A stretch of DNA of 32,186 nt from Clostridiales bacterium (GTDB lineage Bacteria > Bacillota > Clostridia > Lachnospirales > Lachnospiraceae), in contig JAJBTU010000027.1 in NCBI GenBank assembly GCA_020860715.1, forward strand, positions 1 to 32,186. Reading direction: 5' to 3'. Positions 96 to 28,637 of this stretch are shown here, in pieces (position 1 is the first letter of the stretch; every line of letters begins with the position of its first letter). The position numbers and the translations under genes are program-made. A model generated the notes under the pieces. That model was not told where the DNA came from. It saw only the letters and a program-made list of their open reading frames with translations, and did no database searches.

Positions 96-307
96 TTCAG
101 AACAGCAGGCCGCAGACCGCCTACTTCGCAGGCTATATGCCGCTTATGCGTCATATGTCTGTGGCTTGATGGGCGTCTACGCTACCGCTTCGGTCGGTGC
201 TAAACGCGTGCCACTGGCACGCAGCACCCGCCCATCCCAAAATTAAAAGACATCCTTTAGCAGATAAATCTGCACAGTCTGTCTTTTAATTTTGCTGCTG
301 TTCTGAA
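96..307 (-). repeat. structured intergenic repeat, full copy 1
   Basis: A 212-bp element bounded by a perfect 13-bp terminal inverted repeat (TTCAGAACAGCAG at 96-108, its complement at 295-307). Read on the minus strand it holds: a 14-bp stem (AAAATTAAAAGACA with its complement, 239-252 and 280-293) enclosing GCAGATTTATCTGC; a stem GATGGGCG/CGCCCATC enclosing a 49-nt module (180-228) with GGTGCT/AGCACC around a 7-bp hairpin with AGT loop; and a hairpin at 119-133. It is the inverted counterpart of 18075-18338. It starts 4 nt after the stop of the minus-strand gene ending at 312. It contains no credible coding sequence. Confidence 0.85.
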
Positions 308-18074: not shown

Positions 18075-18338
18075 GTTCAAAGCAGCAGCAAAATAGAAGA
18101 ACAGACCGTGCAGATTTATCTGCTAAGGGCTGTAATTCTATTTTGGGATGGGAGGGTGCTGCGTGCCAGTGGCACGCGTTTAGCACCGACCGAAGCGGTA
18201 GCGTAGACGCCCATCAAGCCTCAGGTGCTGAGCGCCAGTGGCGCTCGTTTAGCACCGACCGGAGCGGCAGCGGAGAATATGACGCGTTAAGCGGCATATA
18301 GCCTGCGAAGCAGGCGGTCTGTGGCCTGCTGATTGAAC
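18075..18338 (+). repeat. structured intergenic repeat, full copy 2, with internal module duplication
   Basis: A 264-bp element homologous, in opposite genome orientation, to 96-307. The ends are an imperfect inverted repeat (GTTCAAAGCAGCAG and CTGCTGATTGAAC). The first stem here is AAAATAGAA/TTCTATTTT (18090-18098, 18136-18144) plus ACAG/CTGT around the shared GCAGATTTATCTGC: a different sequence from copy 1 but the same pairing. The 49-nt module is present twice (18155-18203, 18224-18272) with six differences, four of which form two compensatory base-pair changes in the 7-bp hairpin. A further hairpin lies at 18301-18315. The element fills the dnaN-S4 gene gap. Confidence 0.87.
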
Positions 18339-27109: not shown

Positions 27110-27281
27110 CTCTTATTCAGAGTGGTGGAGGTACATAGGATCTGTGAAGCCACGGCAACCCCGGCGCGGGATATCGGAAGATGGATGACGCAATGGAAGG
27201 TGCCAACCTGAGCGAGTGAACTCGAACAATAAGGGGATTTGATGATTGTTTATTGAGTCCGCCTTTTTGGCGGACTCTTTT
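27110..27281 (+). promoter_or_regulatory. SAM-I (S-box) riboswitch with terminator
   Basis: The aptamer opens CTCTTATTCAGAGTGGTGGAG and contains the S-box core AAGCCACGGCAACC, a distal stem near GGAAGGTGCCAACCTG, and a closing P1 strand AATAAG (27228-27233) that pairs with CTTATT (27111-27117 region). An intrinsic terminator follows: GAGTCCGCC, loop, GGCGGACTC, TTTT (27255-27281). By family knowledge, bound S-adenosylmethionine favours the terminator and shuts off metK. The whole 26989-27332 gap is accounted for by promoter, riboswitch and leader. Confidence 0.95.
27255..27281 (+). terminator. riboswitch expression-platform terminator
   Basis: A 9-bp GC-rich stem GAGTCCGCC/GGCGGACTC with a T5 loop, followed by TTTT. 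It forms the off-state of the SAM-I riboswitch upstream of metK. Confidence 0.9.
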
Positions 27282-28532: not shown

Positions 28533-28549
28533 ATCTATTTTTGTAAATA

Positions 28550-28578
28550 TTCAGAACAGCAGGACACAGACCGCCTTC
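28550..28578 (-). repeat. remnant of the structured intergenic repeat
   Basis: 26 of 29 bases match the end of copy 1 at 96-124 (TTCAGAACAGCAGG, then CAGACCGCC). Only one terminus remains. It starts 17 nt after the metK stop, in the opposite orientation relative to the upstream gene compared with the two full copies. Confidence 0.7.
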
Positions 28579-28637
28579 TATTTTATAAAAATTTTAGATT
28601 CCATCCGCTTTCTTTAGGAGAAATGCGTTATTTCCTA

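What the first reader, a model, noticed from the sequence alone, without database searches (positions are those of the whole stretch)
96..307. Dispersed ~210-260 bp structured intergenic element with compensatory changes between copies
Two full copies (96-307 and 18075-18338) share terminal inverted repeats and the same set of nested stems. The first stem is 14 bp in copy 1 (AAAATTAAAAGACA and complement) but AAAATAGAA plus ACAG in copy 2, still paired in both. Changing sequence while keeping pairing indicates selection for the fold, as RNA or as hairpin DNA. It is not a known riboswitch, T-box, tRNA or IS that I recognise. It could be a MITE-like element or an undescribed 3'-UTR RNA.
Basis: partly seen in the sequence, partly recalled or inferred. 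Interest (0 to 1): 0.78.

Follow-up and report, generated by a model that had tools for sequence, protein, structure and literature searches.

The report
Mobile DNA element with conserved fold
A short, non-coding jumping DNA element, copied many times in gut bacteria of the Lachnospiraceae family, keeps an elaborate hairpin fold by matched changes that look like those of folded DNA rather than of an RNA made from one strand, and it seems related to a database entry that is at present listed as an RNA.

Summary
Window copy 1 (96-307, +) and copy 2 (18076-18337, minus strand) are two of 19 near-full copies that I extracted from this genome. The core is ~162 bp; the length difference comes from one or two inserted ~53-bp units ("S"), a separate repeat.

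The core is a MITE. Of 97 copies from relatives, 33 are flanked by 8-bp direct repeats (>=7/8) against 0.53 expected; of 37 with both ends (GTAAC..TTC..) well kept, 31 are. The window copies themselves are old and lack them. The family spans the genus and other Lachnospiraceae genera.

Covariation is massive: 51 of 59 pairs change on both sides; score 0.341 against 0.114 shuffled. It is strand-symmetric: 56 G-U and 56 A-C of 5385 cells; a small tRNA control gave 11 and 0. One conserved pair closes a 2-nt loop, 92 of 92. This fits a DNA fold, or a fold used in RNA from both strands alike, not a one-strand RNA.

Five related TIR-bounded elements match Rfam RF01699 "Clostridiales-1 RNA" below its cut-off. 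No transposase partner was found; the role of the fold is inferred.

The parts
96..307 (+). Copy 1 of the core element (with one S unit inside); outer ends decayed, no target duplication left
   Evidence: CM R1 match L001 96-307 +, 168.8 bits (L001 is one of the sequences the model was built from); ends and flanks
96..108 (+). Left arm of outer stem P1 (inner part of the terminal inverted repeat)
   Evidence: I2, 13 nt, 100%
295..307 (+). Right arm of outer stem P1
   Evidence: I2
168..175 (+). Left arm of hairpin P5 (GATGGGCG), whose loop holds the S unit
   Evidence: I3
229..236 (+). Right arm of hairpin P5
   Evidence: I3
238..252 (+). Left arm of long hairpin P6 (CAAAATTAAAAGACA)
   Evidence: I1, 15 nt, 100%
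280..294 (+). Right arm of long hairpin P6
   Evidence: I1
176..228 (+). Inserted S unit (53 bp), a separate dispersed repeat with its own variable hairpin
   Evidence: 25 strict copies in this genome, reversed-pattern control 0
18076..18337 (-). Copy 2 of the core element (with two S units), between dnaN and the next gene; no target duplication left
   Evidence: CM R1 match L005 1506-1767 minus, 104.6 bits (not used to build R1); dnaN by Pfam
18224..18276 (-). S unit in copy 2, at the CATAT point
   Evidence: (D1)
18155..18207 (-). S unit in copy 2, in the P5 loop
   Evidence: (D1)
28549..28579 (+). Remnant of the left end of a further copy
   Evidence: (E 3.6e-5), sequence

Best explanation
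It is a non-autonomous DNA transposon (MITE, ~175 bp with its ends GTAAC[A/T][G/A]TTCAG). It was moved in trans by a transposase that makes an 8-bp staggered cut in AT-rich target DNA; GTAA ends and an 8-bp duplication are those of IS66-type elements, but the enzyme was not found. The interior folds as a four-way multi-hairpin (outer stem P1 formed by the two ends; P2 carrying P3 and P4; P5; long P6). SHOWN: ends, 8-bp target duplications, copy number, spread, conservation of the fold by Watson-Crick to Watson-Crick changes without strand preference. INFERRED: the fold is kept as DNA (extruded cruciform or single-stranded hairpins). The role I think most likely, and only inferred, is to bring the two paired ends together in an element about one DNA persistence length long, where looping of plain duplex is costly; lineages that lose the fold stop spreading. 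The window copies are old relics that sit between genes, copy 2 carrying two and copy 1 one nested S unit.
For: 8-bp direct repeats: >=7/8 in 33 of 97 copies (28 perfect) against 0.53 expected from re-paired flanks; 31 of the 37 with both ends >=7/9; a length scan on a looser set of 142 peaks at 8 only. Ends: GTAACWRTTCAG counts of 3 to 268 per genome in 12 genomes, reversed-pattern control 0-3. Recent spread: 8 fetched copies with an identical 162-nt core in genomes of different congeners, most at different sites. Covariation: 51 of 59 pairs changed on both sides, score 0.341 against 0.114, slid controls 0.045-0.060. Strand symmetry: G-U 56, A-C 56 of 5385 cells; 12 and 13 of 976 in a structure-blind MAFFT alignment of own-genome copies; tRNA control 11 and 0 of 158, p 0.0009. 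The pair closing a 2-nt loop in P6 is complementary in 92 of 92 (78 T-A, 14 C-G); an RNA hairpin loop needs three nucleotides (recalled), DNA does not. Copies with decayed duplications still have 94.3% Watson-Crick inner pairs, against 95.8% in young ones.
Against: No transposase partner: 0 IS66 (PF03050) in the own genome and in G088 and G115, which are rich in these ends; the long TIR-to-TIR stretches that I read (L298, L299, L318, L319) hold no transposase by eye. The TIR resemblance to IS66 ends is weak (best 14 of 20; 11 of 5244 unrelated GTAA sites do as well). Window copies lack target duplications, and only 1 of 18 own-genome copies has >=7/8. Equal G-U and A-C would also arise if the fold worked as RNA in both orientations. 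The A5 alignment is fitted to the model. The tRNA control is small (7 tRNAs). In one orthologous pair the inner element differs at 1 of 154 positions where the rest differs at 36 of 196, in another 0 of 176 against 7 of 172; this could mean host-level selection in place, or gene conversion, rather than selection on transposition only. No empty site was shown. Nothing here tests the end-synapsis role.
Confidence: 0.72

Rival explanations
1. Orientation-blind RNA element: the MITE is real, but the fold is kept because transcripts that read through it, from either strand, must fold (3'-end protection, insulation or harmlessness between genes).
For: 45 scored copies: 37 between co-directional genes, 5 convergent, 3 divergent (fewer divergent than the 19.6% of intergenic bases, p 0.015); orientation 16 same, 21 opposite; many start within 20 bp of a stop codon. 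MITE reviews describe stable transcripts (PMC10969869, passages seen). Orthologous copies seem slower than their flanks.
Against: The conserved pair across a 2-nt loop is not available to RNA. G-U pairs are no more frequent than A-C. No expression data. Gene context rests on a simple ORF heuristic, with 5 of 50 copies left out at locus edges.
Confidence: 0.25
2. The fold is kept without selection: template switching between hairpin arms during replication re-copies one arm from the other (quasipalindrome correction).
For: Known mechanism that makes multi-base compensatory changes (PMC8794818, abstract and opening text seen). It would give strand-symmetric Watson-Crick changes.
Against: At 0-2% divergence 37 pairs of copies show 0 double and about 14 single pair changes; doubles take over only beyond about 4-6%: two-step, not one-step. 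The P6 loop never appears inverted (TTTA or CTTG 0 of 92) and the commonest P5 loop TTC never as GAA (0 of 92). The outer stem P1, with ~140 nt between its arms, covaries too. Pairs of copies are not independent.
Confidence: 0.15
3. One-strand non-coding RNA or 3'-UTR regulatory RNA, as the first reader proposed as an alternative.
For: Very stable fold, strong covariation, sub-threshold resemblance of relatives to RF01699, which Rfam lists as an sRNA.
Against: G-U 56 against A-C 56; both orientations to genes; mobile-element ends and target duplications; no Rfam match of the window copies.
Confidence: 0.06
4. REP/BIME-like palindromes moved by a REP-associated Y1 transposase.
For: Small dispersed palindromes in intergenic places, mosaic with the S unit; S is inserted in one orientation only (22 of 22).
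Against: No Y1_Tnp (PF01797) in the own genome; the core has 8-bp target duplications, which Y1 enzymes do not make (recalled). The S unit alone could still be of this kind.
Confidence: 0.03

Closest known systems
Bacterial MITEs in general (review PMC10969869, passages seen)
   Same: Short, no coding capacity, terminal inverted repeats, direct repeats that wane with age, AT-rich targets, stable predicted stem-loops.
   Different: Here the whole multi-hairpin interior is conserved across genera by pair-wise changes with no strand preference; that review has no occurrence of 'compensatory' or 'IS66'.
IS66-family insertion sequences
   Same: GTAA terminus and 8-bp duplication: 5 IS66 loci here have GTAA ends and perfect 8-bp duplications (L165; L189, L195; L339, L341).
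   Different: Beyond GTAA the ends differ (best 14 of 20); no IS66 in the own genome or in G088 and G115.
Rfam RF01699 Clostridiales-1 RNA (Weinberg et al. 2010, PMC2864571: table entry, RNA? 'y', cis-reg 'n'; passages seen)
   Same: Matches on 5 related TIR-bounded elements nearly end to end: L331 39.7 bits E 1.2e-5, L328 29.1, L333 28.0, L326 33.7 E 2.8e-4, L124 30.0. L328 and L124 are also hit by our model R1, on the opposite strand.
   Different: All below the gathering score of 48; 31 other element-bearing loci given to the scans, both window copies among them, gave no RF01699 match on the element at the thresholds used; the L326 match was not reported again. No bona fide RF01699 member was at hand to check its ends.
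Composite intergenic repeats such as BIMEs, ERIC, BOX (names and features recalled)
   Same: Dispersed, palindromic, mosaic of sub-units between genes.
   Different: Different sequences and hosts; here 8-bp target duplications and a nested, orientation-fixed S unit.

Membership tests
MITE | Terminal inverted repeats | tested here: met
   GTAACWRTTCAG ends, counts against reversed control; 37 of 97 copies keep both ends >=7/9
MITE | Target-site duplication of fixed length | tested here: met
   8 bp: 33 of 97 against 0.53 expected; not present at the window copies
MITE | Short, without a transposase gene | tested here: met
   162-nt core; no ORF of 80 aa or more touches copy 1; two mechanical ORFs of the minus strand overlap copy 2
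MITE | An autonomous partner with the same ends | tested here: inconclusive
   No transposase in the TIR-to-TIR stretches read; the lists of ends were capped for some genomes
MITE | Empty sites in relatives | tested here: inconclusive
   Flank comparison among fetched loci only; no clean empty site
IS66-derived | GTAA terminus and 8-bp duplication | tested here: met
IS66-derived | Ends homologous to a particular IS66 | tested here: inconclusive
   Best 14 of 20 identities, chosen among several ends; 11 of 5244 other GTAA sites reach 14
IS66-derived | IS66 transposase in genomes rich in the element | tested here: not met
   0 in own genome, 0 in G088, G115, G010, G030, G035; present in others such as G110 and G024
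RF01699 Clostridiales-1 RNA | Score at or above the gathering score (48 bits) | tested here: not met
   Window: no match; relatives 28.0-39.7 bits
RF01699 Clostridiales-1 RNA | Shared fold and ends with bona fide members | not testable with these tools
   No bona fide member could be fetched; viral-contig pattern scans gave none with these ends
One-strand structured RNA | G-U well above A-C at pairs on the transcribed strand | tested here: not met
   56 and 56; 12 and 13; tRNA control 11 and 0
REP/RAYT | Y1_Tnp gene in the genome | tested here: not met
   0 of 1 genome; control rings in 5 of 14 genomes
Riboswitch / T-box / tRNA | Rfam match at the element | tested here: not met
   Only the SAM riboswitch elsewhere in the window; no match on copy 1 up to E 5

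The most novel reading that the evidence does not exclude
A superfamily of bacterial transposable elements whose conserved, covarying multi-branched fold is a DNA fold, kept because hairpin DNA takes part in transposition of elements too short to loop; it includes what Rfam lists as the Clostridiales-1 RNA, so that strong covariation, usually taken as proof of an RNA, here marks mobile folded DNA.
Probability: 0.3. Interest if true: 0.8.

Novelty: new variant of a known kind. Interest (0 to 1): 0.6.

Why it matters
Covariation is the standard evidence for a structured RNA. This family shows about as much of it as a structural RNA, yet without strand preference, on a transposable element with target duplications. 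If that holds, (1) some catalogued 'RNAs' such as RF01699 may be mobile DNA, (2) the ratio of G-U to A-C at paired columns is a cheap test to tell the two apart in any candidate, and (3) folded DNA may be under selection in MITEs, which would make the question why some MITEs spread directly testable.

Tried and rejected
A strict S pattern with wrong spacing found nothing and was replaced. Y1 transposase as mover: none in the own genome. IS66 as mover: ends alike only in GTAA and duplication length, and no IS66 in several genomes rich in the ends. Autonomous partner from TIR pairs 1-6 kb apart: L298, L299, L318, L319 hold ordinary genes; L304 and L320 have poorly matched end pairs and were not read further. 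Empty sites by flank BLAST among fetched loci: only same-site copies, two close sites in opposite orientation (L011/L261) and a degraded one (L008/L148). Literature: the TIR strings occur in 17 papers whose titles suggest primers (listing only); three searches on IS66 MITEs, on compensatory hairpins and on Rfam with MITEs gave nothing close, one on MITE with Clostridium gave 0; a claim of novelty rests on these searches in an open-access library only. Viral contigs: pattern scans for the RF01699 motif gave 0 and 52 hits, none of them with these ends, and one for the TIR pair 0. A first tRNA parse failed and was mended; an RNAalifold script stopped with an error after printing the alignment and was replaced. 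The ortholog counts used in the Fisher test were rough counts by eye; one search gives the exact ones, which I use.

Rows dropped before counts: L006 (contig end) from A2; L005, L021, L006 and L008 from the model alignment A3; 1 of 100 fetched stretches (L217) gave no match at E 1e-10; 7 identical rows in A5; copies too near a locus end.

Full report
WHAT IS THERE. The two copies are real. The window is contig 6 of a 2.67-Mb, 39-contig genome. A search with copy 1 gives 54 matches in that genome, most of them partial, one with a minimal copy 46. I extracted 19 near-full copies. Minimal copies such as L009, L011 and L017 are 160-162 bp between the inner ends. Longer copies, including both window copies, hold a 53-54-bp unit S at one to three places. 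S also occurs alone; a strict pattern finds 25 in this genome and the reversed pattern none. S has its own hairpin with variable arms: 34 of 35 distinct copies perfectly paired, with at least eight different arm sequences. Inside core elements S lies in one orientation only, 22 of 22 in 163 distinct elements, at about six insertion points.

FOLD AND COVARIATION. Consensus: P1 joins the two ends; P2 carries P3 and P4; P5; long P6. In 92 distinct copies from relatives, 51 of 59 pairs have changes on both sides, 95.1% of cells are standard pairs, the covariation score is 0.341 against 0.114 in shuffles (0 of 500) and 0.045-0.060 with slid partners. That alignment is fitted to the model, so it leans to the structure; the structure-blind alignment of 18 own-genome copies gives 25 of 56 pairs with both-side changes.

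DNA OR RNA. A G-U in one strand is an A-C in the other. An RNA read from one strand tolerates G-U and not A-C. Counts: Watson-Crick 5067, G-U 56, A-C 56, other 206 of 5385; own genome 929, 12 and 13 of 976. Seven tRNAs of the fetched loci gave 147 Watson-Crick, 11 G-U and 0 A-C of 158 (difference p 0.0009); this control is small. In P6 the pair that closes a 2-nt loop is complementary in 92 of 92 distinct copies (78 T-A, 14 C-G), which an RNA hairpin cannot use (recalled). Copies separated by less than 2% show single but no double changes (about 14 and 0 in 37 pairs), and doubles come to predominate at larger distances: two-step compensation, as expected from selection, not one-step arm copying. 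Loops do not appear inverted. A fold needed in RNA of both strands equally would give the same G-U to A-C balance; I cannot exclude it.

MOBILITY. Intact copies run 5'-GTAAC[A/T][G/A]TTCAG ... CTGAA[C/T][A/T]GTTAC-3'. Of 97 copies from relatives 28 have perfect and 33 at least 7-of-8 direct repeats of 8 bp next to these ends; re-paired flanks give 0.53; of 37 with both ends kept, 31 do. The matching duplications are 80% A+T. Eight fetched copies share an identical 162-nt core in genomes of different congeners. The own genome is different: 0 of 18 perfect, 1 of 18 at 7 of 8, with decayed ends: old copies. Copies with decayed repeats still have 94.3% Watson-Crick inner pairs (n 57) against 95.8% in those with repeats (n 34).

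SPREAD. DNA search: 28 of 36 genomes of the genus (own included), 0 of 24 from other families of the order. Model R1: 20 of 299 genomes of the family at E 1e-5, nearly all of other genera, with only nine candidates scored per genome, so a lower bound; ten of the 20 have a best score of 60 bits or more. Weak ones include elements with perfect 8-bp repeats (L115, L132 in G088; L116 in G342). The named records found are MAGs called Lachnospiraceae bacterium (30 stretches). Other elements share the ends: a ~134-bp family B (L298, L317, L334, all with perfect duplications) and several in G088 and G115.

MOVER. GTAA ends and an 8-bp duplication fit IS66. As a control, five IS66 loci here show GTAA ends with perfect 8-bp duplications. 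But the ends agree at most at 14 of 20 positions, the own genome and the end-rich G088 and G115 have no IS66, and TIR-to-TIR stretches read hold no transposase. The mover is unknown.

CONTEXT. Of 50 copies, 45 could be scored with a simple ORF heuristic (five of these have a neighbour farther than 600 bp): 37 between co-directional, 5 between convergent, 3 between divergent genes; orientation to co-directional genes 16 same, 21 opposite. Two orthologous pairs: L009/L227 inner element 1 of 154 different, the rest 36 of 196 (whole element with outer ends 9 of 176, flanks 28 of 174); L235/L232 0 of 176 against 7 of 172. Either the fold is also kept in place, or copies convert each other. At one locus two species have the element at neighbouring points in opposite orientation (L011/L261).

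RFAM. The window copies match no family. Among 37 loci (36 with such elements) given to permissive scans, RF01699 Clostridiales-1 was reported on five elements, nearly end to end: L331 39.7 bits, L326 33.7, L124 30.0, L328 29.1, L333 28.0, gathering score 48; L326 was not reported again when scanned with more sequence. A sixth match lies in a flank of an element (L108, 44.7 bits). L328 and L124 are also hit by R1, on the opposite strand (28.3 and 38.5 bits), which links the two. Weinberg et al. 2010 list Clostridiales-1 as probably an RNA, not cis-regulatory, in Clostridiales and human gut (PMC2864571, passages). That RF01699 is the same kind of mobile DNA is a lead, not a result.

VERDICT. 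A MITE superfamily with a fold conserved in a DNA-like way: new variant of a known kind. The MITE assignment is strong, the DNA reading of the fold good but not exclusive, the role of the fold conjecture.

Noticed in passing
window 176-228; 18155-18207; 18224-18276: The S unit, a ~53-bp repeat with a hypervariable, perfectly paired hairpin, nested in core elements in one orientation only (22 of 22), replacing about three bases at some points; its mover is unknown.
   Followed up: partly
L334 95-228 (own genome C31:121994-122127); L298 2340-2473; L317 99-233: A second ~134-bp MITE family (B) with the same ends and perfect 8-bp duplications, also multi-hairpin.
   Followed up: partly
L302 79-173 (G110): A 95-bp perfect foldback made of two inverted copies of the element's right end, with a 7-of-8 target duplication.
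   Followed up: no
L011 1499-1660 and L261 87-247: Two species carry the element behind the same gene, at neighbouring points and in opposite orientation: independent insertions or inversion in place.
   Followed up: partly
L074 (own genome C31:87037-87091): An S unit appears to lie inside a gene that reads like an aminotransferase, the frame seeming to stay open (read by eye).
   Followed up: no
window 27110-27235: SAM riboswitch (RF00162, 67.5 bits).
   Followed up: no
L025 1373-1454: GA-cis RNA (RF02987, 41.4 bits, above gathering) beside a solo S unit.
   Followed up: no
window 28549-28579: A remnant of the left end of a further core copy in the window.
   Followed up: no
L061, L068, L080, L057: Longer variants of the S unit with an extra hairpin between its two halves.
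   Followed up: no
own genome contigs C9, C19, C20 ends: Several contigs end in or near these repeats, so the assembly breaks there and the copy count is a lower bound.
   Followed up: no
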